From Anastrepha obliqua (Eukaryota; Arthropoda; Insecta; Diptera; Tephritidae), in contig NC_072894.1 of the NCBI RefSeq assembly GCF_027943255.1, positions 55,183,601 to 55,247,600 of the forward strand: DNA of 64,000 nt, written 5' to 3'. Position numbers and translations under genes: made by a program. The notes below the pieces were generated by a model that made no database searches, was not told the origin of the DNA, and was given only the letters and a program-made list of their open reading frames with translations. This document shows, one piece after another, positions 1 to 61,098 of the stretch (its first letter is position 1; each line of letters begins with the position of its first letter).

Positions 1-1677
1 TAGGCCTCCAGCGTCCATTGAGTTACCAGTGCTATATATTTGGAGTCGAATTATTATAATATCATAGAAGGGAAATTCAACTATTTTTGTGCGTTATTTT
101 CGTACGTTTTTATAACAGCAAGAAGAACAAAGTTAAAAGTAACCAATTTCTTTTTCTATCAGCTGCATATATGTATATATATTTTCTCTTAATGTTACTA
201 TCAAGGAGTGAGTAAAAGTATTTAGAACCACTTTCTGTAAATTTGGTTTTTTGAAACTTGAAGGGCTTTTAAAAATTTAATGCGAACATGTTTTTGTATT
301 TATAATTTCAGCCGAATAATGAGGAAATGAAAAACTGAATATGCACCATTACTAACATATGTAAAATCTATACTTTCACGCCCACATACAATAAATAACT
401 TTTACTATCGCAATCGCGGATGAGCGTTTTTTTTTTTGGATACATACATATGCGCGTAAAAAACCAAAGCTAATGTGCCATTTTGTACGTATCTATGTAT
501 GTATGTCAAATAGAACAAATAGTACAATTAACTTTTAACTGTTTATCTGTGTCAAAATTTATATCCAATGCATACCTTTATAGGAAACTCAGTATATAAG
601 TTATAGGGTATAACATATATACATATGTATACACTTAAATAAATATTTAGTAGGCATCCACGGTGGGGAGAATACAGGAGCTGGCGACATTTGCGAACCG
701 CTATCGCGGTCTCAGTGAAACTGATTTGCTAACGTAATAATTGAGTTTTGGTTTTAATTTTATTGTTGTATTATTTTTTATTTTTATTATTATTAATGAG
801 CGAATTTATTCCACTACGCGGTTCTCTTTATTGTTTGTTCAATTGTTACATCAAAGCTAGAACTGTTCTCACGGATGGCGTAATTATTCTTGGGAGCCAT
901 CTATACTTTTGTGCTTCCGTACAAGTATCTGCTCAAAAATTAACAGTAAGCATCCCTCTTGATTGATTGCGCGCTCTATCGTTCCTGAGAAAGGAACTGG
1001 TATGTATCAAAGCGTATGGGTGTCTGCGATTTGTCTTTATAAATACGAAACTTCACGTAGCCCCACAAAAGATAGTCGAGTTACAGGAAATTACACGCAT
1101 ACCTACATGGAATACGAACTTTCTTAGAGTCGAAAAGTATAGTATTTATTTTAGATTTTTAACTACTTCTCTGCCAGATAAAGCACCTCCTTCTTGGAGG
1201 CGTTAAGGTTTTTAGCACATTTTGTTTTGCCACTTTCTAGCTTCATATTATATTAATAATAACACGGGAAACAGTGTTCCGGTTAACACTTTGATCTTCT
1301 AGCGATTGTTACAAACCCCATGTTATACAATCCGTGGTAATCCATATATAAGTACATACACCAAACTCTTTTTTCACACGGAAGATTCGTCACTGAGAAA
1401 AGTGTAAAAAAAAATCTTGTAAAAAATTCATGCCACAAAAGTCTAGTTCACAAGTGTCAAATATAGTTGATGTACGACGCCATTTGCAAAGATTATATAA
1501 ATCTTGGGTGATAAATTTTGCCCCACGTTGCACTTAACACTACTGGAAAATGTAAAAATACCATCATTGTTCAAAAATTATGCTCCTAAAATATAAAATA
1601 GTATCGGCCAAAACATGAAATTTCTGCAATTTCGCTTCGTGTTTTCACACCAACGATAACGAACTGTTAGCAACATA
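1..1677. other. Left arm, outer block, no gene seen
   Basis: AT-rich sequence paired with 58,635-61,098 of the right arm. The short open frames at 748-966 and 967-1,206 have no recognisable domain. The right arm carries an extra LINE remnant (58,974-59,803) opposite about position 1,345. Nothing else is supported here. Confidence 0.7.
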
Positions 1678-2164
1678 AAGAGTTTCCCAATAACAGGTGT
1701 TACTTTGAATAGCCCGCTATTTCGGTGGATGTCACTTATGAAGCTGTCATTTCTTGATATTTGACAAGTAGAAACAACCCATTGAAATTATTAAAATTCA
1801 CTATGCAAATTAAGAAAATTTGGCATAGACGGTTCGTAAAATTCGAACATTTTTGGGTCATCGTGAAGCACCTTGTCGGACCGCAATACAGAAATTGGTG
1901 AAAAAATTCGAGCTGTCGGGACAAGTTAGTGAGGTGAAGAATAACACCTGTGTACTTGAGCGATGAAGTACAACCGAAAATATTGCAGTTGTAGCTGAAA
2001 GTGTTGAAGAAAATCCAGGTTTGTCCATTCCTCGTCGTTCATTAGAATTAGGCATTCCACAAACGTCATTACAGCGTATTTTGCATAAAGATTTGGGTCT
2101 TAAGGCTTATAAAGTCCAGTTAACACACGAACTCAAACATAACATCTCTTATTGGAAAACCCTT
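1678..2164 (+). mobile_element. Tc1/mariner remnant, internally deleted (left-arm copy)
   Basis: Flanked by TA on both sides. The termini AAGAGTTTCCCAATAACAGG and (reverse complement) AAGGGTTTTCCAATAAGAGG are imperfect inverted repeats. Between them is the N-terminal part of a transposase on the plus strand, seen as the helix-turn-helix-like stretch LGIPQTSLQRILHKDLG around 2,046-2,096. Compared with the right-arm copy (57,684-58,634) about 460 bp of catalytic domain is missing and the reading frame runs straight into the 3' terminus. Both copies sit at the same mirrored position, so the element was inserted before the inverted duplication and the left copy lost its interior later. Confidence 0.85.
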
Positions 2165-3259
2165 TATAATGCTTTCGCTTCTAAGAAAAAAATCGGAAGT
2201 TAAATCTAAAAAATTTTACAATATCGTGGCATTAGGTTGAAATTAATGGATTTATTTAAAAAAACCCACGCTTATGATTTCTGAAACACTAAGTGTAGAA
2301 ACTCTTAGACTCGTTTACTCGTTTTTAAACATAAAGATACTCCTTGGCTTTCAAACACTTCCTCTCAATAATACCTTGAGCGAGCCTAGACGACAATGTT
2401 ATACTAAATTTGAAAAAAATGCATATATTTTAAAGAGATGACTTCGAAGGAGATTTTGAGCAAGTCCAAATGGAATAAAATCTTTGGTAAAAAATAATAA
2501 TAATAAAATAATTTGCAATATGAAGTCCGATGAAAAGCGAAAAACAAATCTCAAATCTATCGAATTGTGCCAAAAAGATGCATGCAATTAAAGTAGCCTG
2601 AAGCCCGATATCTTTAAACAAAAGAATTTTCGAAAAATTTGCTGAAAACAAGCGACGAGTCGGAATGAAATTCTTTTCATATCTTTGTTTAATCCCTTCT
2701 GATTTTGATTTAGTTTTTTTTTTCATTAAAAAAAAACATTTAATTTTTTGCTTATTATTAATTCTTTCTAGAACAGTAAGAGAATTTTATACTATCTTCG
2801 AACGTTTTTAACCGGTACCATACCGATACTAGTACTATGAAGTATTTCATGCGTCCTAACCACTAAGCTCGACACCCGTTATTGTTCAAATACGGTCCAT
2901 AAAAATTTGCACTAACTGAGTAACCCGATACTAACATTAATAAATTAGCCAAGTTCGCCCTATATTCCGCCTCTCGCCATATTTGTGACATGTTCTCTCA
3001 AGAGCCGGAACATCTTAAGAAAATGACATTATTATTTAAAATTTTATAGCATTACCTGCATTAGTCGCTACTATAGGCCATTTTATTATACATATTATAT
3101 AATAAATAATTATTAATATACAAAGAATTAAATATGTCACATTTTGCAATGCCTACACACATACACGTTACAAGCCACCACAGTTATTTTCTCTTAAAAT
3201 TATTTTCTCAATAATAAAAAAAACGCTACTAAATTACCAATATTCTCTTTTTTCACTTG

Positions 3260-3463
3260 CTAATCTAAATCTTTTTCAGTATCAGCTATTCTCCGGTCGT
3301 ACTTAAGCAAAAACATTTTACACGACATAACTATCAAACTCATTTTTAGCTCATCTTGCATATGTTTAGCAGAAATAAATTCTCTACTGCACCAAATAAC
3401 AGCGGGAACTAAGAGGGGCTTGTGAAAGAAATCGACAAGTTTCAATTTTCGCTTTAAGAACAA
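3260..3463 (-). CDS. Small ORF kept open in both arms (left copy), unknown
   Basis: A 67-codon frame ending in TEKDLD and a stop, matched by the right-arm frame at 55,642-55,884. About 240 aligned bases show five substitutions, and those in the frame all change the amino acid (F/L, P/Q, S/I, Y/F). The frame has therefore stayed open without visible selection on the protein. In the right arm the homologous segment is preceded by an intron-acceptor-like TTTTTCATAG; here it reads TTTTTCCTTG and lacks the AG. It could be the last exon of a decayed gene or a chance frame in young duplicated DNA. No domain is recognised. Confidence 0.25.
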   Translation of the reverse strand: MFLKRKLKLVDFFHKPLLVPAVIWCSREFISAKHMQDELKMSLIVMSCKMFLLKYDRRIADTEKDLD

Positions 3464-4195
3464 ATAAACACATTCATATAAATATCAAGGAAAAACCAAC
3501 AAACAAAAAATTAGATTTATTTTCAGTCAGGTAGTATATTCGTACCTATCAAACTTAACTTAAATGTTATCTATATACTAGCATATTTAGTTAAAATACC
3601 TACCTTACTCACGTACAAACTTACATACATACATATATCAAAATGAGGTTGACGTTGTGTTAAACACAAAGTAAGCAAATAAAAGTTTACATATTTCCGA
3701 AATTTAAGGTGAAATACAAATACCCTGTATGCAAATGCAATCATTTTAAAAACTGAAATTAGAAATTAATACCCACATTTAATGTACTAGAAAAAAGGGA
3801 ATCTAATTCAATTTAAATCTTTGTATTTACTTATACATACTAACATTTACACGCATTACAAACTACAAACCATTAGCAAATTTTCAGCAAAATATATTAA
3901 TGTATTTACATATTTAATATGTTGATGTTCACAAAGGAATCTCGATGTTTTATTAAACAAGTATTGTAGGTGAATTGGGGCAAAAAGCCCAAAAGTATAC
4001 ATGCATTCATACACACATATAATACATCCAAATACATCCAGTAGGTGAATTAGTAGGTGTACGTAGTGTTTAGCTCAGTACAAAATAGTGAAAGTGACTA
4101 AAGTAAAGCCAATTATTAATATATTTTTTGTAACTTTCAAAAAGTTTAGTAGACTTGTCGTGGTAGCTTCGTTCTGTCAATATTACATGCATAAA

Positions 4196-4408
4196 TCAAT
4201 ACCCAGAATTGTCGATTCGCCCATAAATATCTTTGTGTGACTTTTCTACCAAAAATATACCTATGCGGTTTCCCCTTAATTTACTGATTGAATTGGTTTT
4301 TCTATTAATCTTTTTTGCGAATTTTCGAAGAGAAATCACTCGGGAGAGAATCTTTTCTGTTTCAGACGCTCTCGGTTGCCGCCGAAAACAATGGAGTCTC
4401 TGAGGCAA
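4196..4408 (-). CDS. Small basic ORF kept open in both arms (left copy), unknown
   Basis: A 70-codon frame rich in Arg and Lys (includes SLRKFAKKINRKTNSISKLR). The right-arm equivalent is 54,738-54,950 and keeps the same length and stop, with a few replacements near each end. No signal peptide or known domain is visible. Preservation in both arms is weak support only, because the arms differ by just a few percent. Confidence 0.25.
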   Translation of the reverse strand: MPQRLHCFRRQPRASETEKILSRVISLRKFAKKINRKTNSISKLRGNRIGIFLVEKSHKDIYGRIDNSGY

Positions 4409-5257
4409 AAGTAGAGGAAATTTGCCAAATCACAGGGCAGCTTGAACTCTAATGATGGTCGTGACATCCCCCTTATTCAGAGGGTAAACAGCTCGAGTTC
4501 ACTTTCGATTTGCACTTAATTGTGAATTGGCGTAGTATTTTATTACTTGAATTTAAACAAATTAAGTTCCAAGCAAATCGAGAAAGTCAAGAAATGGACT
4601 GCTCATTTTAATTTTGGATTGCCCATCTCTCTCAACCTCTTTTCACTGCACTAGCATTACTATGTTCCCTACATGTACATATATAAAGAACCTTATAAAT
4701 TGAGAGACTACTACTGATACTGGACAGACATAGATTGCACCTTATTTAGGCTTTTATTTTTCAAATATTTTTCTATTGGTTCTTCTAAAACCACCAGAAT
4801 GTTTAAATTTTCAAGTCTTTTTTTCTTCACAGTTTTCTATTTATAGTACCTTATAACATATATTTTTTATATATTTGACCATAAATCAATGAAACAGTAC
4901 TAATTTTTCTGGAACTAAAAATGTGTTTTAGAAAATACACAAAAAAACCGAAAGAACACAGAAATAGCCCGTAAAAACTTAAATGTAGAATTTATTGAAA
5001 TAAATATTTTGTTCCCCACACCTAATCTATATTCGCTTGGTAGCCAAAGCATTTATTAGTTTCTCCAGTAACACTATGCGATAGCTTAGCCAACTGTGTG
5101 GTCAAGAAATATTCGTGAACTAACCTTTTTTTACATACATACCTCCTGCAACTCTCTTATTTACATAGTATCACTTCTTCCTTGTTCGAAGCACACATAC
5201 CGTTTTGTCATGATCAACGACCTAGGCAGAGTTGAGTAGTACAAAAAAACTTAAAAT

Positions 5258-5700
5258 AACATAATACAACGTTGCATAACATTACTATACTTAGCACAAC
5301 ATACCAAACTTAAGCAGTTAAGCGAGTAATTTATTTTCAACAATGTCTTATGCATATGCAGGTCAAGCAAGAAATTAATAGATATAAGAAAATCAAAAGA
5401 TAGCAAAGTGTTGCTAAGCCAACATTTTTGAATGGCTAAATTCCAAATTTAATACAATTAGTATGGCACGCATACATCTTTAAAGGCTAAAAACTTGTTG
5501 CTCAAGGCCAAGCTTGGGAATTCCAACTACTCATTAAAATGGACGAAATTACACGTTTACATGATATTGCTTTAAGGTTTTACTAAAATTTCACGTTTGA
5601 CATAACAAGCATAACAGCACACAACACAACATAGCACGGCATAACATAACATAACATAAAAGAATGCAGCATATTATAACACATAGCATAGCATAACAAA
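5258..5700. repeat. Degenerate TAACA-type pentanucleotide tracts
   Basis: Runs such as CATAACATAACATAACATAA near 5,640-5,660, with scattered variants (CATAGCATAGCATAAC) and an earlier diffuse patch near 5,258-5,320. The mirrored tract in the right arm lies about 53,170-53,300 and has a different register and length, as expected for slippage after duplication. Confidence 0.6.
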
Positions 5701-6058
5701 CATCGCGTAGAAAGGCGTAAAATAGGTCAGCTCATATGAATTTACTGTAATCTTAATAGGTCTCACTATACAACATGTGTATTATTATATCTGAGAGATC
5801 ATAAAGTTATCTTATGGTTCCATGTTAACCCAGTCCCATAGGGATAACTGTCGAAATTCTTTTGAAAGTCTAGATCCTCTCGTATCTGCCTGCCAGTCTC
5901 CCTTAAGCCCTTAAAAATGATGTTTCCTAGGCCTTTCATTACAACTTAGAGGTGAAAAAAATTTTATTATACTGCTGTTAGGGCCTCAAGTACTTTTGCA
6001 TCTGATTCACATCTACTCAATGAAGTGCAAAGTTTTATTTCAGACACATATGCATTAG

Positions 6059-6190
6059 GGCGGGTCAATTTGTTCTTAAGAAATATAAGCGGCTTTGTTT
6101 CGGCGATTGAAGTATTTTACTGGGAATACTGAACAAAAACGTACCTGGAAGCATAGCTCTAAAATGTATTTCGACACTTCTTAATTCTGA
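6059..6190 (+). mobile_element. Solo terminus related to the foldback-like element
   Basis: Starts AGGGCGGGTCAATTT and later reads GCATAGCTCTAAAATG. This resembles the first 130 bases of the 14,006-16,612 element (AGGGCGGGTCGATTT, then CCATACCTCTAAAACG). It is also present at the mirrored place in the right arm (about 52,690-52,825), so it predates the duplication. It is probably an old relic of the same transposon superfamily, and no partner terminus is seen nearby. Confidence 0.4.
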
Positions 6191-6211
6191 GTTATTAATC
6201 CTTAATAATTA

Positions 6212-8232
6212 CACTGTGTGACAAAACAAAAAAATTACATATACTTTTATGGAGACCTAGCACAACTTATGGCTATAGAAAAACTAAACAAAATGGTATA
6301 GGAGAAATTTCCAATACACCCCCAAAATCTCATTTTATGGCCATAAAACCGTTTTTCAGTAGGTTGATGTGAAGAATCACTCCAGCTTCGCCAATTTCCA
6401 TCCGATTTCGAATCTGTTTTTTTAGTTCGAAAGAACAAAAACAAGCCTTTTTGACAGTGTGTTGACAATTTTTCTGAAATGACAACTGACGAGACTGTAG
6501 ACGGAAGTATTAGGCATTTTTTTATTTTTTCTCTATTTGTTCAACTTTGACATAATTTTTACGATATTATCCGTTATTGAGGATTTTTTTTTAGTACATT
6601 ACTTTTATAGTAAATTTAATTTTGCGTCGAATGAGTTATATTTGACTGTAATTGAATTAAAATTAAAAGAGTTGAGAGTTGAGAGAGAGTTGTGTGAGTT
6701 TTAAGATTTTATTTTTGTTTTTTACTAATTTGGTATGTAGGCATCGAAGCATGAAAATGATAACAAGTGTCATTATAAACACATAATATTTATTAGAGTA
6801 TTGTGCAGTGCAGCATTGTACGGTATGGTACGGTGCGGTACGGTGGAGTACACAACGGAACTGGTTCCAAACTTAAAAATGCATTGGGAACGGCCCTTTG
6901 GAGTTTAGTATGGTACGGTACATTTGTCATTCTCTTCATCAGTTTTGAATACTTCTCTGTAAGAAATTCGATCATCATCATTCATCTGAAGTCGTCATCA
7001 ACTAAATTCCATTGTTTAAATCGAGAAGCGAGCGTTTCAGATTGTCTTCCCGATAGAAGTAAATCACGAGAAAGATCCTGAAAATCTGAATTTGATACAA
7101 TGTGTCGTTCTGAAGACTTAGAACCAGACGGAAAGTACTCTTCATCATCAGGTTTATTGTTATCAGTTTGATCATCATCAGCAATGAATTGAACTTCCTA
7201 CAGTTCCTGCAGTTGAGTCAATCATATCGTCCAAGACTACGGGGTTCTTAACAGTTGCGACATCAGCATACTTTATGTGCTTTCGAGCTTTATAATGATG
7301 ACCGTTTACGTCCGTTTTATAAAAATAACAATCATCTGGTTTATGATAAGACTGATGATGCCACATCATCGGAGAATATTGAGAAATTCGACTTTTCTGG
7401 CAACGTTTTGATTTATATCTCTTGAATTTCTATGAAACAAACAATACAACTTTGACGTTTTAATAAAGTTAAATTATAACAACAAACTTATTTTGTTAAT
7501 CAATGTACAGTGTGAACTTTGGTACACTTGGGAGCTTTTCCATATTTCCATTGAAAAAAAAATGTGCTATAATATGTCAGATATTTTCGTAAGTTCTAAC
7601 CAGTTCTGTTGTATGCAGTACAGTGTACTCTTATGTATACATATATACTCCAATAAATATTACGTATCTATAATAACGCATCAAAACACGTCCTTATTCC
7701 CATTTAGCGTAAGTTATACCTACATACCAAATTAGAAAAAAAAATAAAATCTTAAAACTCACACAACTCTCTCTCAACTCTCAACTCTTTTAATTTTAAT
7801 TCAATTACAGTCAAATATAACTCATTCGACGCAAAATTAAATTTACTATAACAGTAGTGTACTAAAAAAAATCCTCAATAACGGATAATATCGTAAAAAT
7901 TATGTCAAAGTTGAAAAAATAGAGAAAAAATAAAAAAATTCCAAATACTTCCGTCTACAGTCTCGTCAGTTGTCATTTCAGAAAAATTGTCAACACACTG
8001 TCAAAAAGGCTTGTTTTTGTTCTTACGAACAAAAAAAACAAATTCGAAATCGGATAGAAATTGGCGAAGTTAGGAGTGATTCTTCACATCAACCTACTGA
8101 AAAACGGTTTTATGGCCATAAAATGAGATTTTGGGGATGTATTGGAAATTTCTCCTATACCATTTTTCTTAGTTTTACTATACCTACAAATTGTACTAGG
8201 TCTCCATAAAAGTATAAAATCATCGTACAGTG
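6212..8232. mobile_element. Long-TIR DNA transposon with CACTG ends and TTA duplication
   Basis: Inverted repeats of about 510 bp (6,212-6,742 against 7,718-8,232) flank about 1 kb of internal DNA. The ends are CACTGTGTGAC and CGTACAGTG. The three bases TTA occur at 6,209-6,211 and again at 8,233-8,235. The right arm has the uninterrupted site with a single TAA (complement of TTA) at 52,671-52,673, which fixes the boundaries and shows insertion after the palindrome formed. A 3-bp duplication with CACTG ends points towards PIF/Harbinger- or CACTA-like mechanisms, but no transposase is recognised. The interior contains a short GGTAC-type pentamer array near 6,815-6,855 and only short open frames. 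It is probably non-autonomous. Confidence 0.85.
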
Positions 8233-9136
8233 TTATTTTTATTTTGTTGCAGTTTTTTTGGGAGAAAATCTACGTTTATGGTTTTTGGGTACAAGAAATT
8301 CAGTTTTTATGTCTATTTTGATTTCCGGTAGGGAGCGTAACATTGCAAAGTTTAGTTACTTTTACTACTTTTAATGGAAAACATCGATTTTCCCTACACT
8401 CAAATATAAAAAAAAAAACAAATTATTTATTGCAATTATTTTATTCCAAATATAAAAAATACATAAAACCTAAAAGTATTTGATGATAAAAAAGCAATAA
8501 AATTTTCCAAAAAAATTGGTTCATTATATTTTTAACTGTGTGACACAAACATCTTTTAAATCTCAGGTCTTGTCAAATAGAAAAGCTGCATGCTCCGAAT
8601 TTGAATTAGCCCTCAAAATCTCGATTCAGTGCAGAAAATCCAATTTTTCATAAATTCAAGAATACATTTGTCAGTAACTTTGTATTTATTTACTCGGTAA
8701 AAAAGTTTTATACATGCCACTCATTTATAATTTGTGAATATTTTTTCACTTAAAATACTTCTTTTCGACAAGCGTTAGCAAGTGGCGAATAGATGACGCA
8801 ACTGGTATAAATTAACATATATTGGCAACGCAGGAATTACATGTGTTTGTAAGATGTGAGTTATACCAGTCTAATGAGGTACATTACTCACTAGCAGCGA
8901 ATCTTACTCGATAACTTTGTTGTTGCTTTCGCAAGCAAATTTTTCGTTAAGTTAATCGAGCATGGAGTGTGCGGAAATGGCGAATAGAAGAGGCCTTATT
9001 TTAAATTACTGGTTTGTATACCAGTGTGTATAAATTATTATATGCGAAAAAACTACTTTCAATTTTATTTCCAGCGAGTTAAATCCTCAGAGGGTATTTT
9101 ACTATTTTATTTTGTCATAAAATATGTTTCATTTAC
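8233..9136. other. Left-arm sequence, no gene seen
   Basis: Mirrors about 51,770-52,670. No coding frame with recognisable content, only A/T-rich intergenic-like sequence. Confidence 0.6.
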
Positions 9137-9775
9137 TGTCAGCGTCAAAATAAAGTGTACAACAGATATTGTTAAGTTTTGACTATTTGTTTATTTATTT
9201 TATAATTTCAATTATTTGTTTATAAAAATATGGTTCGTACTAAAATAAAACCCATATACATACCTGTAAGGTTTCGAACTTAACATAAAATTTATAAAAA
9301 TTCTGCAAATGTTCAGCAAAATTTCACAATTTTTACTAGAAATTTATAGAAAAATTTCAGGTACGCAGTTTTGTAGATTATTGAATTTTGGTATACTATA
9401 TATACTATTGCGTTGATTTTTTGACAATTTTTTCTGCTGACGGTATAGGATGTTTTTTCTATATAAGAAAATTGTGTCGAATAGAGAAAATGCGCAAGAC
9501 TACTTCCTAAAAATATTGTCAAAAATCAATGTAATTTTGAATGTACTTAAAACTTGCACTTCATTATACCAAAATTGAATGATCTATAAAACTAAATAGA
9601 TAACCGAAATTTTTCTTAAAATTCGAAGTAAAAAGTCTAAAAATCTGATGAAAATTTGCCGAATTTTTACAAGTTTTATAAGAAGTTCGAAACTTTAGCT
9701 TATATGGCTTTTGTTGTAGTTGAACAATACTTAAAAAAAATAATAGAAAAATTTATTTAGGTTGAACAACCAAAT
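9137..9775. mobile_element. Tc1-like non-autonomous element, one end lost (left copy)
   Basis: Begins with GTCAGCGTCAAAATAAAG near 9,139, the terminal repeat that the right-arm copy (51,086-51,770) carries at both ends. Here the second terminus and about 190 bp of adjacent arm DNA are missing, so the left arm has a deletion ending near 9,765. The interior (9,300-9,560) has partly palindromic sequence and a short frame without known domains. Confidence 0.6.
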
Positions 9776-12399: not shown

Positions 12400-12424
12400 A
12401 CGCCCTTTGTTTTGAGACCATACT

Positions 12425-17690: not shown

Positions 17691-17699
17691 TAGGTCAAT

Positions 17700-21662: not shown

Positions 21663-21679
21663 CAAAACAAAACAAATTA

Positions 21680-22980: not shown

Positions 22981-23044
22981 GTGACAACAAAATGGTACGG
23001 AAGCGCTAGTTGTATTCTGGATGAATCACCACTTTAACCAACCA

Positions 23045-44760: not shown

Positions 44761-44848
44761 TTATTTAAAAAAAAATGCGTTTTGCTATTGAAGTAAAAAG
44801 GAAATAATAATAAAAAATATCAATGAAAATAAATTAATAAAGACATAC

Positions 44849-49516: not shown

Positions 49517-49520
49517 TTAA

Positions 49521-51085
49521 TATTTAAATAATATTCCAGAATGTTAATCGGATGTATATTAATTAAAATTTACACCAGCCAGTTATTTCCGCATTAAACT
49601 AACGATAGGCACGCACCCACACGGTTTCTCGATTTCTTCTACACGCAAATTACTGATTGTCTCTTAGATACACAAAATGTACAAATAGATATACATATAT
49701 TGACGTAACTTCTTGACTTTATAAATGTACCTTGACGTAATTATAAGTATATATATATTTTAGTTAAATTTTTTATCCAGAAATAGTATTGTTTTGGTGA
49801 AATTTCGCTTTTGCTTTGTTAGCTTAAGTTGACAGTTGCCACATATAAATTTTATAGCTAACGATGGTTTTTATTGTTACTTTTTTGGACATTTTTTAGT
49901 GCTGTTAAATTGACAGAGTATATGTAAATGAATACATTTCATATAATATTTGTTAAAATAGTACATATATTATAATTTTATGGTTCGATCGCACTTTGAG
50001 GTGCCCACAATGCATTCTTAATAATCTTTACAACTTTCCATTTTTTTATTTTACTTTACCTTTGCAATCTCTAACAGCAATAAAATTTCTCTATTTCAAC
50101 ATTATTAATCAAACCTTTCTGTTTGGTTGCTTTTAAAAATATTGTTAAATTTTACAACATTTTTTAGTGTTGTGTGTTTGTAATGTTCAACTTGAAAGTT
50201 TCGTATGCATAAAGTAATTTTGTTTCTTTTGTTTTTGGGAGGGTTTTTTAATCTTCTTATTTTTTAAGTAAGTACATTTAATTAGTTTTTTTGCTATCAT
50301 AATATTTTTTGTTTGTTTTTGTAAATACCAGAAATTTCACATGTCATACAGTCATACATAAAACTAGGAAATATTAACCTACATATATATGTATGTATAT
50401 TATATTAACTAACTACATATAAGGGTGGGACCTGCCCTGCCTTCAGGAATTAACGCTTTTAGCTCAGTAGTAGTAGTTGTGGTATTTTTGGCGCTAATGC
50501 TGTTGATGATGCCTTGAACTTTCGTTCAACAACGTATTTTTTGTAATAAATGGGGTGTACATCTATTTTTCAACTATATTTTGAATTTCCTTCTTTTTGA
50601 TACTACTTTAGTTCTTAAATAAATGCTTGTATACACCTGCACATACATCTATTTTGACTGTTAACAATCCAATGACTATGCTTTTTGCTTTATATAATCA
50701 GTGAAGAGATAGGCATGTACCATAAACATGCGTATTAAATAAGTTTATGCACATTAGAACTGGTAAAATGTTTCCTCTACTTTGTTTCGACCACTGAAAT
50801 ACTCTACGGGCAATTCTGAATGAAAAAGTCCAAGAAGTCGTAGCTCTAAAATGGGTTTTAAGCCTCCTTATTTGATTATTCAACCTCAATAAACTTTGTT
50901 TTTTAGAAAATGTTTGAGTTATTTCTGGAGTTTAAGTTGAACGTTGGTTTAACAGACTCATAGCAGAATTTAATAAAAAATATTTTTGTGGTGCGTGCTA
51001 ATTTGTTACATGTCACTATTATGATTATTTTTTGCAAAGTAAAACCAGTACTCTATAGTTTTTCCGTTTTTTTTTTTTCAGAATA
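49521..51085. other. Right-arm sequence, no gene
   Basis: Mirrors 9,776-11,117. 50,895-51,085 has no left-arm partner because of a left-arm deletion. Nothing coding recognised. Confidence 0.6.
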
Positions 51086-51770
51086 TAGTCAGCGTCAAAA
51101 TAAAGTGTACACCACATGTTGTTAAGATTTGACTATTTATTTATTTATTTTCAAATTCATATTAGTTTTTTTTAAGTACAGTTCAACTACAACAAAAGTT
51201 ATATAAACTAAAACTTCGAACTTTGTACAAAACTTGTAAAAATTCGGCAAATTTTCATCAGAATTTCAGACTTTTCACTTATAATTAAAATTAAGAAAAA
51301 TTTTGGTTATCTAGTTTTATAGATCATTCAATTTTGGTGTAATAAAATGCAAGTTTTAAGTACATTCAAAATTACTTTGATTTTTGACAATTTTTTTAGG
51401 AAGCGGTCTTGCGCATTTTCTCTATTCGACACAATTTTCTTATAAGGAAAAAACATCCTATACCGTCAGCAGAAAAAATTGTCAAAAATCAACGCAATAG
51501 TATATATAGTATACCAAATTTCAATAATCTACAAAACTGCGTACTTGAAATTGTTCTATAAATTCCTAGTAAAAATTGTGAAATTTTGCTGAACATTTGC
51601 AGAATTTTTATAAATTTTGTGTTAAGTTCGAAACCTTAGTTTACAGGTATATGGGTTTTATTTTAGTACGAACAATATTTTTATAAACAAATAATTGAAA
51701 TTATAAAATAAATAAACAAATAGTCAAAACTTAACAATACATGGTGTACACTTTATTTTGAAGCTGACGG
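51086..51770. mobile_element. Tc1-like non-autonomous element (right copy, both ends kept)
   Basis: Inverted ends GTCAGCGTCAAAATAAAG and (complement) GTCAGCTTCAAAATAAAG, extending with mismatches for about 70 bp (both continue to TTGACTATTT). The interior has two mutually inverted halves and no transposase. Confidence 0.75.
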
Positions 51771-54737
51771 TAAATGAAACATTTTTTATGACAAAATAAA
51801 ATAGTAAAATACCCTCTGAGGATTTAACTCGCTGGAAATAAAATTGAAAGTAGTTTTTTGGCATATATTCTTTATATACACTGGTAAACAAAATAGTAAT
51901 TTGAAATAAGGCCTCTTCTATTCGCCATTTCCGCACACTCCATGCTCGATTAACTTAACGACAAAATTTGCATTCGAAAGCAACAACAAAGTTATCGAGT
52001 AAGATTCGCCGCTAGCGAGTAATGTTGTAGCTCATTAGACTGGTATAACTCACATCTTACAACCACATGTAACTCCTGCGATGCCAATATATGTTAATTT
52101 ATACCAGTTGCGTAATCTATTCGCCACTTGCTAACGCTTGGCGAAAAGAAGTATTTTAAGTGAAAAAATATTCATAAATTATAAATGAGTGGCATATATA
52201 AAACTTTTTACCGAGTAAATAAATACAAAGTTACTGACAAATGTATTCTTGAATTTATGAAAAATTGGATTTTCGGCACAGAATCGAGATTTTGAGGGCT
52301 AATTCAAATTCGGAGCATGCAGCTTTTCTATTTGACAAGACCTGAGATTTAAAAGATGTTTGTGTCACACAGTTAAAAATATAATGAACCAATTTTTTTG
52401 GAAAATTTTATTACTTTTTTATCATCAAATACTTTTAGGTTTTATATATTTTTTATATTTGAAATAAAATAATTGCAATAAATAATTTGTTTTTTTTTTA
52501 TATTTGAGTGTAGGGAAAATCGATGTTTTCCATTAAAAGTAGTAAAAGTAACTAAACTTTGCAATGTTACGCTCCCTACCGGAAATCAAAATAGACATAA
52601 AAACTGAATTTCTTGTACCCAAAAACCATAAACGTAGATTTTCTCCTAAAAAACTGCAACATAATAAAAATAATTATTAAGGATTATTAACTCAGAATTA
52701 AGAAGTGTCGAAATACATTTTAGAGCAATGCTTCCAGGTATGTTTTTGTTCAGTATTCCCAGTAAAATACTTCAATCGCCGAAACAAAGCCGCTTATATT
52801 TCTTAAGAACAAATTGACCCGCCGTAATGCATATGTGTCTGAAATAAAACTTTGCACTTCATTGAGTAGATGTGAATGAGATGCAACAGTACTTGATGCC
52901 CTAACAGCAGTATAAGAAAATTTTATTCACCTCTAAATTGTAATGAAAGGCCTAGGAAACATCATTTTTAAGGGCTTAAAGGAGACTGGCAGGTAGATAC
53001 GAGAGGATCTAGACTTTCAAAAGAATTTCGACAGTTATCCCTTTGGGACTGGATTTACATGAAATCATAGGATAACTCTACGATCTCTCAGATATAATAA
53101 TACATATGTCGTATAGTGAGACCTATTAAGATTATAGTAAATTCATATGAGCTGACCTATGTTACGTCTTGCTACGCGATGTTTGTTATGCTATGCTAAG
53201 TAAAGTTATGTTATATTATGATATGTTGTGTTATAATATGCTGTATTCTTTTATGTTCTGTTATGTTATGTTCTGTTATGTTGTGTTGTATGCTGTTACG
53301 CTTGTTATGTCAAACGTGAAATTTTAGTAAAACCTTAAAGCAATATCATGTAAACGTGTAATTTCGTCCATTTTAATGAGTAGTTGGAGTTCCCAAGCTT
53401 GGCCTTGAGCAATAAGTTTTTAGCCTTTAAAGATGTATGCGCGCCATACTAATTGTATTAAATTTGGAATTTAGCCATTCAAAAATGTTGGCTTAGAAAC
53501 ATTTCAATTGCTTTCTTTTGATTTTCTTGCTTTCAATTGCTTTCTTTAATTTTTTGCTTGACCTGTATATGCATAAGACATTTTTGAAAGTAAATTACTC
53601 GCTTAACTGCTTATGTTTGGTATGTTGTGCTAAGTATAGTAATGTTATGCAACGTTGTATTATGTTATTTTAAGTTTTTTTCTACTACTCAACTTTGTCT
53701 AGGTCATTGATCATGACAAAACAGTATGTGTGCTTCGAACAAGGAAGAAGTGATGTTAGGTAGATAAGAGTGTTGCAGGAGGTATTTATATGAAAAAAAG
53801 GTTAGTCCACGAATATTTCTTGACCAAATAGTTGGCTAAACTATGGGCTAAGCTATCGCGTAGTGTTTTGGAAAAGCTAATAAATGCTTTGGCTACCAAG
53901 CGAATATAGATTAGGTGTGGGGAATTCTACATTTAAGTTTTTACGTGATATTTCTGTGTTCTTTTGGGTTTTTTGTGTATTTTCTAAAATACATTTTTAG
54001 TTCCAGAAAAATAAGTACTTTTTCATTGATTTATGGTCAAATATATAAAAAATATATGTTATAAGGTACTATAAATAGAAAACTGTGAAGAAAAAAAACT
54101 TGAAAATTTAAACATTCTGGTGTTTTTAGAAGAACCAATAGAAAAATATTTGAAAAATAACAGCCTAAGTAAGGTGCAATCTACGTCTGCCCAGTATTAG
54201 TAGTAGTCTCTCAATTTATAAGGTACTTTATTTATGTACATGTAGGAGACATAGTAATGCTAGTGCAGTGAAAAGAGGTTGAGAGAGATGGGCAATCCAA
54301 AATTAAAATGAGCAATCCATTCAAGTAATAAAATACCGCCAATTCACAATTACGTGCAAATAGACAGTCATGTGCAAATTATGAAGACAAATACTCTTCT
54401 ACATACTTTACATTTAGTTGTTGTATTGTCATGGTAATTTATAAACGCCATGATGCCAGTTTATTTGCACTTAATTGAGAACTGCGCTATTATTTAGAAT
54501 AACTAAAACATGTAACACTTCATTGTCAGCGCAGACGGAGAGCTACAAGCCTATTAACAGAGTAGGAGATGGTGTTTTACCGTAAATCTCACCCTTATAT
54601 TTTTCGAAATATACCTTGGAGTCAACCCGTAATGGGATCGAAAGTGAACACGAGTTGTTTACCCTCTGAATAAGGGGGATGTCACCACCATCGTTAGAGT
54701 TCAAGCTGTCCTGTGATTTGGCAAATTTCCTCTACTT
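51771..54737. other. Right-arm sequence, includes empty site and pentamer tract
   Basis: Mirrors 4,410-6,211 and 8,233-9,136. TAA at 52,671-52,673 is the empty target of the left-arm long-TIR element. 53,170-53,300 holds the TGTTA-type degenerate pentamer tract. No gene seen. 54,360-54,600 has extra sequence relative to the left arm. Confidence 0.6.
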
Positions 54738-54950
54738 TTGCTTCAGAGATTCCATTGTTTTCGGCGGCAGCCGAGAGCATCTGAAACAGAAAAGATTCTC
54801 TCCCGGGTGATTTCTCTTCGAAAATTCGCAAAAAAGATTAATAGAAAAACCAATTCAATCAGTAAATTAAGGGGAAACCGCATAGGTATATTTTTGGTAG
54901 AAAAGTCACACAAAGGTATTTATGGGCGAATCTACAATTCTGGATATTGA
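54738..54950 (+). CDS. Small basic ORF kept open in both arms (right copy), unknown
   Basis: 70 codons, same length as 4,196-4,408, sharing CFRRQPRASETEKILSRVIS. Unknown family. Weak evidence of being a gene. Confidence 0.25.
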   Translation: MLQRFHCFRRQPRASETEKILSRVISLRKFAKKINRKTNSISKLRGNRIGIFLVEKSHKGIYGRIYNSGY

Positions 54951-55641
54951 TTTATGCATGTAATATTGATAGAACGAAGTTACCACGACAAGTCTACTAA
55001 ACTTTTTGAAAATTACAAAAAATATTGATAAAAGGCTTTACTTTCGTGACTTCCATTATTTTGTACTGAGCTAAACACTACGTACACCTACTAATTCACC
55101 TACTGGATGTATTTGGATGTATTATATGTGTGTATGTGTGCATGTATACTTTTGGGCTTTTTGCCCCAATTCACCTACAATACTTGTTTAATAAAACATC
55201 GAGATTCCTTTGTGAACATCAACATATTAAATATGTAAATACATTAATATATTTTGCTGAAAATTTGCTAATGGTTTGTAGTTTGTAATTCGTGTAAATG
55301 TTAGTATGTATAAGTAAATACAAAGATTTAAATTGAATTAGATTCCCTTTTTTCTAGTACATTAAATGTAGGTATTAATTTCTAATTTCAGTTTTTAAAA
55401 TGATTGCATTTGCATACAGGGTATTTGTAATTCACCTTAAATTTCGGAAATATGTAAACTTTTATTTGCTTACTTTGTGTTTAACACAACGTCAACCTCA
55501 TTTTGATATATGTATGTATGTAAGTTTGTACGTGAGTAAGGTAGGTATTTTAACTAAATATGCTAGTATATAGATAACATTTAAGTTAAGTTTGATAGGT
55601 ACGAATATACTACCTGACTGAAAATAAATCTAATTTTTTGT
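54951..55641. other. Right-arm sequence, no gene
   Basis: Mirrors 3,480-4,195, AT-rich, no gene. Confidence 0.6.
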
Positions 55642-55884
55642 TTGTTGGTTTTTCATAGATATTTATATGAATGTGTTTATTTGTTCTTAAAGCGAAAATT
55701 GAAACTTGTCGATTTATTTCACAAGCCCCTCTTAGTTCAAGCTGTTATTTGGTGCAGTAGAGAATTTATTTCTGCTAAACATATGCAAGATGAGCTAAAA
55801 ATGATTTTGATAGTTATGTCGTGTAAAATGTTTTTGCTTAAGTTCGACCGGAGAATAGCTGATACTGAAAAAGATTTAGATTAG
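55642..55884 (+). CDS. Small ORF kept open in both arms (right copy), unknown
   Basis: Ends FDRRIADTEKDLD and a stop. An acceptor-like TTTTTCATAG precedes the shared part at 55,659. If real, it would be a terminal exon. The left copy lacks the AG. Confidence 0.25.
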   Translation: MLVFHRYLYECVYLFLKRKLKLVDLFHKPLLVQAVIWCSREFISAKHMQDELKMILIVMSCKMFLLKFDRRIADTEKDLD

Positions 55885-56526
55885 CAAGTGAAAAAAGAGA
55901 ATATTGGTAATTTAGTAGCGTTTTTTTTATTATTGAGAAAATAATTTTAAGAGAAAATAACAGTGGTGGCTTGTAACGTGTATTTGTGTAGGAATTGCAA
56001 AATGTGACATATTTAATTCTTTGTGTATTAATAATTATTTGTTATGTAATATGTACTATAAAATGGCCTATAGTAGCGAGTAATGCAGGTAATGCTATAC
56101 AATTTTAAATAATAATGTCATTTTCTTAAGATGTTCCGGCTCTTGAGAGAACATGTCACGAATGTGGCGAGAGGTGGAATATAGGGCGAACTTGGACAAT
56201 TTATCAGTGTTAGTATCGGGTTACTCAGTTAGTGCAAATTTGTATAGACCGTATTTGAACAATAACGGGCGTCGAGCTTAGTGGTTAGGACACATGAAAT
56301 ACTTCATAGTACTAGTATCGGTATGGTAGCTGTTCAAAACTTTGGAAGATAGTATAAAATTCTCTATAAATTGTTCTAGAAAGAATTAATAATAATGAAA
56401 AAAAAACTAAATCGAAATCAGAAGGGATTAAACAAAGATATGAAAAGAATTTCATTCCGACTCGTCGCTTGTTTTCAGCAAATTTTTCGAAAATTCTTTC
56501 CACCGTGAGAATTTGCGGCTCTATAA

Positions 56527-56851
56527 CAGAGGTCGGCAAGTGTTGTTACGAGTGGGGGTGAGCACAGAGTAAGCGCTCTGCCCAGTGAAAAGTAAAAAGA
56601 GTAAGCCAGGGCGTCAAAAACCAAATGCGCCAAAAAAGGAAAAGTAAATACTAAATTAAATTAAATACTAAGTAATTTAAATTAATTAAAATTTATACTT
56701 TTGGGGCTTTTTCAATCATTTTATTCACATATCCAAATATGTGTGTCTACTGTAGAGTAAGAATTAGGTTTAGAATAATGACTGATTTGAAGAGCGAAAG
56801 TATACGGGTGTTGAGTGTACGAGCAGCACGCGCAACCTTTAACGACCCCTG
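56527..56851. mobile_element. Small hAT element, CAGAGGTCGGCAA family
   Basis: Starts CAGAGGTCGGCAAGTG and ends CGACCCCTG. Flanked by CTCTATAA (56,519-56,526) and CTCTATAG (56,852-56,859), an 8-bp duplication with one mismatch. Same terminal motif as 62,570-63,096. No transposase. Confidence 0.8.
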
Positions 56852-56859
56852 CTCTATAG

Positions 56860-57683
56860 GTATACAGATGCGCTGCCCCATTGATCTGCTCTTGTGCATC
56901 GTACTTCTTAAATACACACTTTCTCTCTCTCTTTTTCTCTCACTAGATTACGACCAAATATTTTTTTGTGTGTTAAATTTCATTTTAGAGTCGTCCAAAG
57001 AAATTGCTCTACAAAAAGTGACCTAAAACAATCCTCTTCTCACAATGGTACTAGTAAAATACTCGTAGAGTTATTTGTTTTACCTCGAAAATGTTAAGTC
57101 AAAAAGGCGTTTGGTTGTTAACTGTTATTTGTTTTATTTAAAAGGGTACATGGGCGTTCTTTATAATTACTAAAAAAATGCGATCTGGTACAGAGTGATT
57201 TAAGGTACAATAAGTAATTTCAGGTTGTTTAAAGATATCGGGCTTTAGGCTACTTTAATCGCATGAATCTTTTTGGCACAATTCGATAGCTTTGAGATTT
57301 GTTTTTCGCTTTTCATCGGACTTCATATTGCAAATTATTTTATTATTATTATTTTTTACCAAAGATTTAATTCCATTTGGACTTGCTCAAAATCTCCTTC
57401 GAAGTCATATCTTTAAAATATATGCATTTTTTTTCAAATTTAGTATAACATTATCGTCTAGGCTCGCTGAAGGTATTATTGAGAGGAAGTGTTTGAAAGC
57501 CAAGGAGTAGCTTTATGTTTAAAGACGAGTAAACGAGTATAAGAGTTTCTACATTTAGTGTTTCAGAAATCATAAGCGTGGGTTTTTTTTAAATAAATCG
57601 ATTAATTTCAACCTAATGCCACGATATTGTATAATTTTTTAGATTTAACTTCCGAATTTTTTCTTAGAAGCGAAAGCATTATA
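56860..57683. other. Right-arm sequence, partly without left partner
   Basis: 56,860-57,228 is absent from the left arm (probable left deletion) and includes a CT-rich stretch (56,925-56,945). 57,229-57,683 mirrors 2,165-2,620. No gene. Confidence 0.55.
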
Positions 57684-58634
57684 AAGGGTTTTCCAATAAG
57701 AGGTGTTATTCCCGTAAAATATCAATGGTTTCGTTGCTTGTATGGCACTTTGCGTTATCTTGTTGAAAGTAAACGTTATCCAGATCAATACCATCCGATT
57801 CCGGCCATAAAAAATCGTTAATCATCTCTCGATAGCGCAATCCATTCACGGTAACTATTGCTTCAGCCTCATTTTCGAAAAAGTAAGGTCCAATGACTCC
57901 GTCGGACCATAAACCGCACCAAGCAGTCACACGTTGAGGACAGAGAGGCTTTTCAACAATAACTCTTGGATTTTCTGAGCCCCAGATCCGACAATTTTGC
58001 TTGTTAACGAAGCCACCGAGGTGGAAATGGGCCTCATTAGTCAAGATGATGTTTCGATGGAATTCCGGATCATTTTCATGCATTTTAACGACCCAATCAG
58101 CAAAGACACGACGTTGTTGATGATCAGCCGGCTTGAGTTCTTGTGTTAACTGGACTTTATAAGCCTTAAGACCCAAATCTTTATGCAAAATACGGTGTAA
58201 TGACGTTAGTGGAATGCCTAATTCCGAAGAACGACGAGGAATGCCCAAAACTGGATTTTCTTCAACACTTTCGGCTACAACAGCAATATTTCCGATTTTC
58301 GACTGTTCTTGAGCGACGTGCACGGGTTTTATTTTTCACATCACTAAATTGTCCCAACAGTTCGAATTTTTTTTACCAATTTCTGTATTGCGGTCCGACA
58401 AGGAGCTTCACGATGACCCAAAAATGTTCGAGCTTTACGAACCGTCTCTGCCGAATTTTCACCATTTTTATAGTAAATTTTAATAATTCCAATGCGTTGT
58501 TTAAACATGTATCGTTTCATTTTTATTAATGGCGTAGTTTCTACTTGTCAAATATCAAAAAATGACAGCTTCAAAAGTGACATCTACCGAAATAGAGGGC
58601 TATTCAAAGTAACACCTGTTATTGGGAAACTCTT
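57684..58634 (-). mobile_element. Tc1/mariner element (right copy, fuller)
   Basis: 951 bp with TA on both sides (57,682-57,683; 58,635-58,636). Ends AAGGGTTTTCCAATAAGAGG and (complement) AAGAGTTTCCCAATAACAGG. Same mirrored position as 1,678-2,164, so inserted before the duplication. Confidence 0.92.
57706..58530 (-). pseudogene. Mariner transposase, frameshifted and C-terminally deleted
   Basis: The N-terminal part reads MKRYMFKQRIGIIKIYYKNG in one frame from about 58,520. A run of eight A (complement, near 58,370) shifts the frame, and a 205-residue frame then covers the second helix-turn-helix and the catalytic core. NEAHFHLGGFVNKQNC has Asn where the first catalytic Asp is expected, and VYFQQDNAKCHTS keeps the second Asp. 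The frame ends at ETIDILRE and joins the terminal repeat directly, so the third-Asp region is missing. Inactive on three counts. Confidence 0.9.
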
Positions 58635-58973
58635 TATGTTGCTAACCATTCGTTATCGTTGGTGTAAAAACACGAAGTGAAATTGTATAAATTTCATGTT
58701 TTGGCCGATACTAATATATTTTATATTTTAGGAGCATAATTTTTGACTAATGGAGGTAAATTTACATGTTCCAGTCGGGTTAAGTACAGCGTGGTGCAAA
58801 ACTTATCACCCAGGATTTTTAATCTTTGCAAATAGCGCCGTACATCAACTATATTTGACACTTGTGAACTAGACTTTTGTGGCATGTATTATATTTTTTA
58901 CAAGATATGTTTGCACACTTTTCTCAGTAACGTATCTTCCGTGTGAAAAAAGAGTTTGGTGTATGTACTTATA
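58635..58973. other. Right-arm sequence, no gene
   Basis: Mirrors 1,345-1,677. Confidence 0.6.
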
Positions 58974-59803
58974 CATGGTGAACGATATGAAGTGTTACCA
59001 ACTTCACACTGCTTGCATCTGTAAAACAGCTCATGACATCAACGTCAAAATTCTCAGGAATAAGTTTCGTGATTCATATAAGTATTTGTATAAAATTACA
59101 TTCATATTTTTGAGGTTAACATAAAAAGTAATTCGGAGAATTTTTACCAATATATTAAATCGATGAAAAAGGCTTCTCTAAGACGTTACTGCTTCCTCTG
59201 TTAGTGATACAGCGAACTTATTTGCTGATTTCTTCGCATCTAATTTCGTATCTTATGAAGATCTTGATGAAGAACATTTGGCAGCCATTCGCCAAAACTT
59301 CGTGAGGATATTTTTTTCTACTGTTAACTTCAGTTCACTTGTTCTCTCAGATGATGATGTTATTGAGGGATGGTTGAAGATTATGAACTCTTCTCAAGCT
59401 GATGCCGATGGTATTTCTGTAATATTGCTTGTGGCTCTATGTTGCAATCTTTGCAAGTAAATTTTAATATTTAAATCCTTAGCTGGAGGAATATTTATCG
59501 ATGAATTGGAAGCTAACATCAGTCACTCCAATTTAGAAAAGGGCACATATAGCGATAATGCCAATTGTAGTTGTAAGATCTACGTTATCGAAGTTTGTCG
59601 TATTTTCAGTTTTTTCTGAAGATTGCTATTGCAGACTTTCAGAGTGGTTTCCAAATTGACTCGATATACACAAACTTCTCTAAAGCATTCGATAAAATCT
59701 CCAATACCATTTTAGCAACTAAATTGACATGCCTTGGTTTTCACTTGACTTTCCTTTGACTAGATTCGTCCTTATTTAATAAAGAGGAGTAGCATAGTAG
59801 TTA
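58974..59803 (+). pseudogene. LINE ORF2 remnant, right arm only
   Basis: Reads LRNKFRDSYKYLYK, TANLFADFFASNFVSYEDLD, SQADADGISVILL (degraded from the DGI.....LK motif), then FQSGFQIDSIYTNFSKAFDK near 59,640-59,700. That is the finger and palm entry of a jockey-like reverse transcriptase, with the motif A Asp changed to Asn (TNFSKAFD). Many stops. The left arm is uninterrupted near 1,345. Confidence 0.75.
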
Positions 59804-61098
59804 TAAATATATGGATTACACGGATTGTATAAAATGGGGTTTGTAACAATCGCTAGATCAAAATGTTAACCGGAATACTGTGTCCCGTATTATTATTAAT
59901 ATGAAGCTAGAAAGTGGCAAAAAAAATCTGCTAAGAACCTTAACGCCTCCAAGAAGATGATTGTGCTTTATCCGGTAGAAAAGTAGTTAAAAATCTAAAA
60001 TACTAAAATACGATTCAAAGTTCGTTTTCTATGTACATATGTAGGTATGCGTGCAACTTCCTGCCGCTCGACTATCTTCTGTGGGGCTACGTGAAGTTCC
60101 GTATTTATAAAAACAAATCACAGCCACCCATACGATTTGATTCATACCAGTTACTTTCTCAGGAACGATAGAGCGCGCAATCAACCAAGAGGTATGCTTA
60201 CTGTTAATTTTTGAGCAGATACTTGTACGAAAGCACAAAAGTTATAGATGGCTCCCAAGAATAATTGCACCATCCGTGAGAACAGTTCTAGCTTTGATGT
60301 AACAATTGAACAAACAATAAAGAGAGTAAATTCGCTCATTAATAATAATAAAAATAAAAATTAATACAACAATAAAATTAAAATTAAAATGCAATTATTA
60401 CGTTAGCAAATCAGTTTCACTGAGAGCACGATAGCGGTTCGCTAATGTCGCCAGCTCCTGTACTCTCACCACCGTGGATGCTTCCTATTTATTTAATTGT
60501 ATACGTATGTATGTATGCTATAAACTCAAACTTATATACTGAGTTTCCTATAAAAGTATGCATTGGACACAGATAAACAGTTAAAAGTTAATTAAAATTT
60601 GTACTATTTGTTCTATTTGACATACATACATAGATACGTACAAAATAGCACATTAGCTTTGGTTTTTTTTCGCGCATATGTACATAGGTATGTATCCGAA
60701 AAAACGCTGATCCGCGATTGCGATAGTAAAAGATATTTATTGTATGTGGACGTGAAAGTATAGATTTTACATATGTTAGTAATGCTGCATATTATTATAA
60801 ATACAAAAACATGTTCGGATTAAATTTTTAAAAGCCCTTCAAGTTTCAAAAAACTAAATTTTCAGATAGTGGTTCTTAATACTTTTATTCACTCCTTGAT
60901 AGTAATATTAAGAGAAAACATATATACATATATGCAGCTGATAAAAAAATAAATTGTTTACTTTCAACGTTGTTCTTCTTGCTGTTATAAAAACGTACGA
61001 AAATAACGCACAAAAATAGTTGAATTTTCCTTCTATGATAATAATTCGACTACAAATATATAACACTGGTAACAAAATGGACGCTAGAGGCCTAAGTA
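59804..61098. other. Outer right-arm block
   Basis: Mirrors 1-1,345 at about 95% identity by eye. No gene recognised. 61,098 is only the limit of what the window can show, because its partner is base 1. Confidence 0.8.

What the first reader, a model, noticed from the sequence alone, without database searches (positions are those of the whole stretch)
1..61098. A 61-kb interrupted palindrome made of diverged arms
Nearly the whole window is one inverted duplication with a 2.25-kb spacer. Arm differences of a few percent and many arm-specific, boundary-perfect transposon insertions make a simple hairpin-read artefact unlikely. Palindromes of this size are known from sex chromosomes and amplified loci. 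This one is built almost entirely of transposon-rich DNA, with one unknown gene at the centre. A diverged-haplotype misjoin remains possible.
Basis: seen in the sequence. Interest (0 to 1): 0.9.

Follow-up and report, generated by a model that had tools for sequence, protein, structure and literature searches.

The report
Giant inverted duplication of a fly gene
In a fruit-fly chromosome, a gene for a membrane-traffic protein and the DNA behind it exist as two mirror-image copies, and the window is the middle of that mirror; it is one piece of a larger set of repeated copies that appear to have swapped sequence with each other.

Summary
The palindrome is real in the assembly and far larger than reported. 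The window is C3:55183601-55247600 of an 836-Mb genome. A SCYL2 protein named for Anastrepha obliqua sits on a contig of exactly C3's length, so the species is very probably A. obliqua. The inverted arms run on to at least 224 kb, and by search hits about 256 kb. They are two SCYL2 copies converging tail to tail. The right copy has all exons; the left shows only residues 351-897 and a premature stop. The "unknown gene" at the centre is a truncated non-LTR retrotransposon. Arms differ by 7.8% substitutions and by arm-specific transposons. Two substitution-free tracts (888 and 771 columns; 95% shuffle maximum 138) indicate recent arm-to-arm gene conversion. A third copy 15.3 Mb away shows the innermost tract is not merely slow-evolving; it resembles the right arm outward but neither arm inward. 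The SCYL2 exon-1 region has 9 genomic copies, 4 in tandem on C7. Best reading: one mirror pair in an ampliconic low-copy-repeat cluster. No reads were available.

The parts
1..34170 (+). Left arm (L) inside the window; continues left of the window to at least window coordinate -105393
   Evidence: inverted chain
36407..61094 (-). Right arm (R), the part matched within the window; continues to at least 118829 (window coordinates)
34171..36406 (.). Spacer between the arms; 34171-34777 is collinear with the third copy T (C3:39.90 Mb, where a 2-kb element interrupts it), so it continues the arm on the left-arm side
34831..36409 (+). 5'-truncated non-LTR retrotransposon (RVT_1 ORF 34836-36071, AATA tail 36378-36409), abutting the inner end of the right arm; no target-site duplication seen
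33262..34149 (.). 888-bp identical tract, left-arm side (right-arm partner about 36428-37315): gene-conversion tract
18052..18818 (.). Second substitution-free tract (771 alignment columns, 767 left-arm bases, two small indels); partner about 44211-43083 in the right arm, interrupted there by a later 352-bp insertion
43475..43826 (.). 352-bp element with inverted ends, TSD GTAC, right arm only (L and T have the empty site)
47700..49516 (-). piggyBac-type element (DDE_Tnp_1_7 ORF 48686-49288), exact TTAA duplication; absent from L, present at the same site in T: a shared derived marker of R and T
46960..47260 (.). Where the three-copy relationship switches (R about 47,058; L about 11,654-11,746): outward T is close to R; inward T is about as far from R as L is, or further
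6212..8232 (.). 2.0-kb element with about 500-bp inverted repeats near its ends (CACTG...CAGTG), TSD TTA, left arm only
23953..27618 (-). Non-LTR retrotransposon (endonuclease ORF; RT ORF below Pfam's cut-off), 10-bp TSD TGTTTGTGGT, left arm only
28029..33226 (+). Helitron (Helitron_like_N plus PIF1 helicase ORF 29478-32765), left arm only, in a TA run

Best explanation
This is the central part of a very large, old, tail-to-tail inverted segmental duplication of the SCYL2 gene region on chromosome C3 of (very probably) Anastrepha obliqua. Shown: the right copy carries all SCYL2 exons on the minus strand (window coordinates 156905 to 84879); the left arm carries the inverted 3' part (residues 351-897) with a premature stop; the window is the transposon-rich DNA downstream of both 3' ends, meeting at a spacer of about 0.66 kb plus a retrotransposon. 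Shown: the arms took separate transposon insertions. Strongly inferred: arm-to-arm gene conversion has rehomogenised at least two tracts near the centre, while the outer right arm has exchanged with, or was copied to, a third copy 15.3 Mb away. Inferred: the mirror arose by inverted duplication (fold-back or template-switch repair) within a locus that became ampliconic, since a 3' exon of it occurs at six places on C3, two of which look like another inverted pair, and its exon-1 region at four tandem places on C7. Probably only complete copies are functional, and the palindrome itself is a by-product with no function of its own.
For: Collinear inverted chain far above controls. Extension to at least 224 kb and search hits further out. 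SCYL2 exons in both arms by tblastn; the protein is named SCY1-like protein 2 of Anastrepha obliqua, on a contig of 145,582,729 bases = C3. Nine exon segments, 504 codons, L against R: dS 0.086, dN 0.033, ratio 0.38; in the seven segments inside the chain 50 of 1254 bases differ against 3489 of 44,010 in the rest. TSD-proven arm-specific insertions. Two substitution-free tracts of 888 and 771 columns against a 95% shuffle maximum of 138 (2000 shuffles). In the innermost block L-R is 5/944 while L-T is 76/938 and R-T 77/938, so a low mutation rate does not explain it. Switch of the L/T pattern at R 47,058: max chi-square 161, largest of 2000 permutations 20.5. Copies: exon-1 region 9 places; exon 691-775, 6 places, all on C3.
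Against: No long reads, depth or Hi-C could be checked, so assembly error is not excluded, above all for the T copy, whose outer part matches R at 99-100%, close enough to be an uncollapsed haplotype. Divergence is heterogeneous, and part could reflect regional rates. The inner part, where T is far from both arms except in one stretch of 2.3% (R 44704-43827), needs more than one exchange event. Three of 10 inspected junctions show no target duplication. The left arm was read only to -119999, so the loss of its 5' exons rests partly on the absence of a nearby exon-1 hit.
Confidence: 0.75

Rival explanations
1. Assembly artefact: two diverged haplotypes or two paralogous contigs joined in inverted orientation by the assembler.
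For: No reads were available here; T and R are 99-100% identical over about 9 kb, which an uncollapsed haplotype would also give.
Against: Arms differ by 7.8% substitutions, about as much as L differs from T, a copy 15.3 Mb away; the identical stretch around the spacer is only 0.9 kb, short for long reads to cross; no N runs in the 264 kb.
Confidence: 0.13
2. The L-T relationship is a chromosomal inversion: a crossover between the inverted copies L (+) and T (-), 15.3 Mb apart, swapped their outer arms, so that today's outer T is the old left arm of the palindrome.
For: The pattern switches at one point (R 47,058); outer T shares the piggyBac insertion with R; outer L branch 0.042 and inner T branch 0.031-0.073 (outside the 771-column tract) are both long.
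Against: Inner L is not close to R outside the converted tracts (L branch 0.033-0.038; next to the switch L is even longer than T, 0.038 against 0.031); T-R identity keeps changing outward (97% to about 100%), which one crossover does not give; a 90-odd-bp deletion in T lies at the switch.
Confidence: 0.2
3. No gene conversion: one inverted duplication with uneven substitution rates or constraint.
For: SCYL2 exons do evolve more slowly than the rest.
Against: The innermost tract is 0.5% between arms but 8% from T in the same columns; neither the 888- nor the 771-column tract lies in the SCYL2 exons; open frames over all blocks show no third-position excess (329/346/334).
Confidence: 0.07

Closest known systems
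Low-copy repeats at the Anopheles gambiae 2Rj inversion breakpoints (PMC1952172, abstract read)
   Same: Dipteran low-copy repeat made of degraded transposons, with inverted arms and a spacer, at more than one place in the genome.
   Different: There 14.6 kb with 5.3-kb arms and no coding capacity; here over 200 kb, carrying SCYL2 exons, with diverged arms; no inversion is shown here.
Housefly M-V palindrome with two Mdmd copies (PMC11252125, passages read)
   Same: Fly palindrome with a spacer of about 3 kb and a gene copy in each arm.
   Different: M-V arms are highly identical and it has TIRs and a 9-bp direct repeat like a transposition; here the arms are diverged, and the outer ends were not reached, so such ends could not be sought.
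Sex-chromosome ampliconic palindromes of mammals (PMC3723533, PMC8981503: abstract openings in a search listing)
   Same: Large inverted repeat, short spacer, multicopy gene, gene conversion between arms.
   Different: Those arms exceed 99% identity; here only about 1.7 kb is near-identical and most of the rest is 3-12% diverged by 2-kb bin; sex linkage not established.
Recurrent X/Y gene co-amplification in Drosophila (PMC6690552, abstract opening in a search listing)
   Same: A gene amplified on more than one chromosome.
   Different: Whether C3 and C7 are X and Y is unknown.

Membership tests
Inverted segmental duplication / low-copy repeat | Non-satellite, non-transposon unit over 1 kb, in few copies, collinear across several element types | tested here: met
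   Chain over at least 224 kb; exon 691-775 in 6 places, exon-1 region in 9
Inverted segmental duplication / low-copy repeat | Identity of about 90% or more | tested here: inconclusive
   L-R substitutions 7.8%, but 68-99% by block with gaps; R-T about 97-100% outward of R 47 kb where compared, lower inward
Ampliconic sex-chromosome palindrome | Arm-to-arm identity above 99% over the arms | tested here: not met
   Only two long tracts, 888 and 771 columns, are near-identical
Ampliconic sex-chromosome palindrome | Multicopy gene in the arms | tested here: met
   SCYL2 exons in both arms and elsewhere
Ampliconic sex-chromosome palindrome | Lies on a sex chromosome | tested here: inconclusive
   Ribosomal_S3Ae family hit on C3, recalled Muller-F gene; one marker; second marker search not answered
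Ampliconic sex-chromosome palindrome | Testis-biased expression | not testable with these tools
   no expression data
Foldback transposon | Discrete element with terminal repeats and target duplication, many dispersed copies | tested here: inconclusive
   Outer ends not reached, so termini untested; few copies of the innermost arm (L, R, T only); arms hold exons of a host gene, which speaks against it
Inversion-breakpoint repeat (2Rj type) | Same repeat at both breakpoints of an inversion | not testable with these tools
   Inverted copies L and T 15.3 Mb apart exist, but no second karyotype or relative is held

The most novel reading that the evidence does not exclude
SCYL2, a conserved vesicle-traffic pseudokinase gene, has been co-amplified on the X (C3, bearing a Muller-F marker) and on a second, possibly Y-derived scaffold (C7, four tandem units of about 195 kb with the exon-1 region). 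The C3 palindromes would be the X side of a sex-chromosome arms race, and ectopic exchange between their inverted copies would drive inversions.
Probability: 0.12. Interest if true: 0.85.

Novelty: new member of a known kind. Interest (0 to 1): 0.58.

Why it matters
It gives a natural experiment: three copies of one unit, two as a mirror and one 15 Mb away, in which gene conversion can be measured against distance from the palindrome centre. Near-identity is confined to short tracts near the centre while the outer arms drift apart, unlike mammalian sex-chromosome palindromes. It also shows an amplification of SCYL2 in a pest fruit fly that my eight paper searches did not list, with a second copy (T, known from two exon hits and its flanks) almost identical to the complete right copy, and inverted repeats placed so that recombination between them could invert 15 Mb.

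Tried and rejected
Chance alignment of dispersed transposons: rejected by controls. A giant transposon: disfavoured because the arms hold exons of a host gene, though the outer ends were not reached; the edges I inspected proved not to be the last matches. A selected gene at the centre: the ORF is a retrotransposon RT. The scan of open frames over all aligned blocks found no third-position excess; constraint shows only when the SCYL2 exons are taken alone. My automatic TSD finder returned only short, mostly homopolymer matches and was dropped for inspection of 10 junctions. The first dN/dS run had a frame slip in one exon and is replaced; the exon-against-rest count (66 of 1512) included two exons outside the chain and is replaced. 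One search was swamped by a 1.3-kb element and told nothing about T. One search did not list the query's own place, so its tally is a lower bound. Searches use the chain; its outermost block was dropped. The three-way count keeps 14,084 columns where all three pairwise alignments agree. The polyQ ORF gave no Pfam match above cut-off and no credible PDB match; its identity came from the next exon. Motifs used, the Muller-F place of RpS3A and the type of some transposons are recalled.
Full report
WHAT WAS CHECKED. The window aligned to its own reverse complement gives one collinear chain of 31 blocks joining 1-34170 to 61094-36407, 16,716 columns, mean identity 90.9%, with spacer 34171-36406. 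In the surrounding 264 kb the true chain scores 58,947; controls from the same DNA reach at most 3,781 (inverted, true matches removed) and 5,476 (direct).

WHERE IT IS. The window is C3:55183601-55247600 of an 836-Mb, 204-contig genome. Below, coordinates are window coordinates; add 55,183,600 for C3. The best-matching SCYL2 protein is named for Anastrepha obliqua and lies on a contig of 145,582,729 bases, the length of C3, so the species is very probably A. obliqua. I could not read its genome paper (not held).

EXTENT. With 100 kb on each side the chain runs on to -77274/111297, with one further block at -96218/114654, then, past transposon insertions, to -101531/116054 and -105393/118829: 224 kb in DNA read here. 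Nothing collinear in L -119999 to -105394 matches R 118830-164000 (one 119-base 71% match there is the only one), but a genome search places R 121940-123964 on C3:55,051,766-55,054,653 in inverted orientation at 78-88%, so the mirror probably spans about 256 kb.

WHAT IT CARRIES. tblastn of the 897-residue SCY1-like protein 2 (rows under 28 bits not shown) finds every part of it on the right, minus strand, from 156905 to 84879; row identities are 58-100%, the low ones because matches run past exon ends. The left arm has residues 351-897 on the plus strand (-101038 to -36448), shows no match for the short exon 776-800, and has a premature stop near the C terminus. No exon-1 hit lies between C3:54.69 and 55.34 Mb (9 of 9 candidates scored). 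The two copies converge tail to tail and the window is the transposon-rich DNA downstream of both. Nine exon segments, 504 codons: dS 0.086, dN 0.033, ratio 0.38, as expected if one copy is constrained and the other largely free. In the seven segments inside the chain 50 of 1254 bases differ, against 3489 of 44,010 in the rest.

ARM DIFFERENCES. The chain without its outermost block has 3539 substitutions in 45,264 columns, 7.8%. One search lists 45 clean one-sided gaps of 100 bases or more (22 left, 23 right). Of 10 junctions inspected, four show an exact target duplication and an empty site opposite: a piggyBac in R (TTAA), a 352-bp element in R (GTAC), a CACTG-type element in L (TTA), a non-LTR element in L (10 bp). 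A Helitron in L sits in a TA run. R 58979-59806 has an imperfect duplication; R 40896-42509, 56500-57224 and 57710-58132 show none and may be losses in L; the tenth was not compared. The four proven cases argue against a read artefact.

GENE CONVERSION. Substitutions are strongly clumped (chi-square 637, 61 degrees of freedom, 62 blocks). Two substitution-free tracts, 888 and 771 columns (the second with two small indels), compare with a 95% shuffle maximum of 138 (2000 shuffles); divergence rises outward (Spearman 0.30 without the innermost kilobase). A third copy, T, at C3:39.90 Mb is the yardstick: innermost block L-R 5/944, L-T 76/938, R-T 77/938. So the centre is not slow; it was recently rehomogenised. 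The second tract is broken by the 352-bp insertion found only in R, so that insertion is younger than the conversion.

MOSAIC WITH THE DISTANT COPY. Over 14,084 three-way columns T is close to R outward of R 47 kb (branch lengths L 0.042, R 0.009, T 0.0095). Inward it is not: outside the two tracts the branches are L 0.033-0.038, R 0.015-0.027, T 0.031-0.046, and in the tracts T alone is long (0.018 and 0.073). The switch at R 47,058 has max chi-square 161 against a permutation maximum of 20.5. One inner stretch, R 44704-43827, is again close to T (2.3%). T carries the piggyBac of R at the same TTAA site, while L is empty. Further out T matches R at 97%, then 99%, then about 100%, beyond the palindrome as read (R 61-114 kb was not compared apart from one exon, 100%). 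Exchange between R and T, more than once, is the simplest reading; a crossover between L and T that inverted 15.3 Mb is a specific alternative; a haplotypic duplication is not excluded for the near-identical outer part.

THE CLUSTER. Exon-1 region: C3 at 55.340, 40.025 (99%), 54.688 (98%), 53.869 (90%), 53.232 (86%) and four places on C7 (90%) spaced 188-202 kb. Exon 691-775: six places, all C3, no stops inside: T and R 100%, L 93%, P2a 53.448 Mb 91%, L2 54.989 Mb 89%, P2b 53.592 Mb 82%. P2a and P2b with their exon-1 hits form what looks like another tail-to-tail pair of about 638 kb; that is read from coordinates only.

THE CENTRE. The spacer up to 34777 is collinear with T. From 34831 to 36409 it is a 5'-truncated non-LTR element with 39 other places listed (40 of 4521 candidates scored), ending at the inner edge of the right arm, with no target duplication seen. 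It either patched the junction or replaced some of the right arm's end; undecided.

MECHANISM. Most likely a fold-back or template-switch repair event copied the SCYL2 3' half and its downstream DNA in inverted orientation (inferred); the arms then diverged (shown), with short conversions near the centre and exchange with T outward (strongly inferred). No function need be assigned to the mirror itself.

KNOWN RELATIVES. The nearest described case found is the transposon-patchwork inverted repeat at the 2Rj breakpoints of Anopheles gambiae (PMC1952172, abstract). The housefly M-V palindrome (PMC11252125, passages) and mammalian sex-chromosome palindromes (search listing only) share architecture but not the high divergence. 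None of the listings of my eight paper searches named a SCYL2 palindrome; none of the 8 papers shown contained the word SCYL2. That is not proof of absence.

SEX LINKAGE. The Ribosomal_S3Ae family (PF01015, RpS3A) maps to C3 at 70.97 Mb. From memory this gene is on Muller F in Drosophila, the element homologous to the ancestral X according to PMC13231274 (passages). One marker cannot decide; a second did not complete.

Some counts were corrected (exon comparison, branch lengths inward of the switch, junctions without duplications, outer ends not reached). None required a change of the stated odds.

Noticed in passing
C7:2,416,960-3,006,073 of the own genome: Four copies of the SCYL2 exon-1 region in the same orientation, 188-202 kb apart, a tandem array without a hit for exon 691-775.
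   Followed up: partly
C3:53,231,721-53,869,816: What looks like a second tail-to-tail SCYL2 pair (exon-1 region and exon 691-775 mirrored), about 638 kb, known from coordinates only.
   Followed up: partly
C3:39,954,669-40,026,793: T copy of SCYL2 nearly identical to the right copy in the two exons searched (exon 691-775 100%, exon-1 region 99%): true recent duplicate or uncollapsed haplotype.
   Followed up: partly
window 34671-34800: Short interspersed repeat of about 130 bp at the spacer, with 36 other places listed at 80-90% on C1-C6 and C14 (capped); T's homology to the spacer ends inside it.
   Followed up: no
window coordinates 134310-135576 (L026): A 1.3-kb element with about 30-bp inverted ends (mariner-like by recall), 38 copies listed at 92-94% on C1-C5 (capped).
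   Followed up: no
window 14171-16274: Element with 508-bp inverted ends 98.4% identical, in a left-arm stretch without counterpart in the right arm.
   Followed up: no
C3:70,971,773-70,972,788: RpS3A (PF01015) lies on C3; recalled as a Muller-F gene, so C3 may carry ancestral X material.
   Followed up: partly
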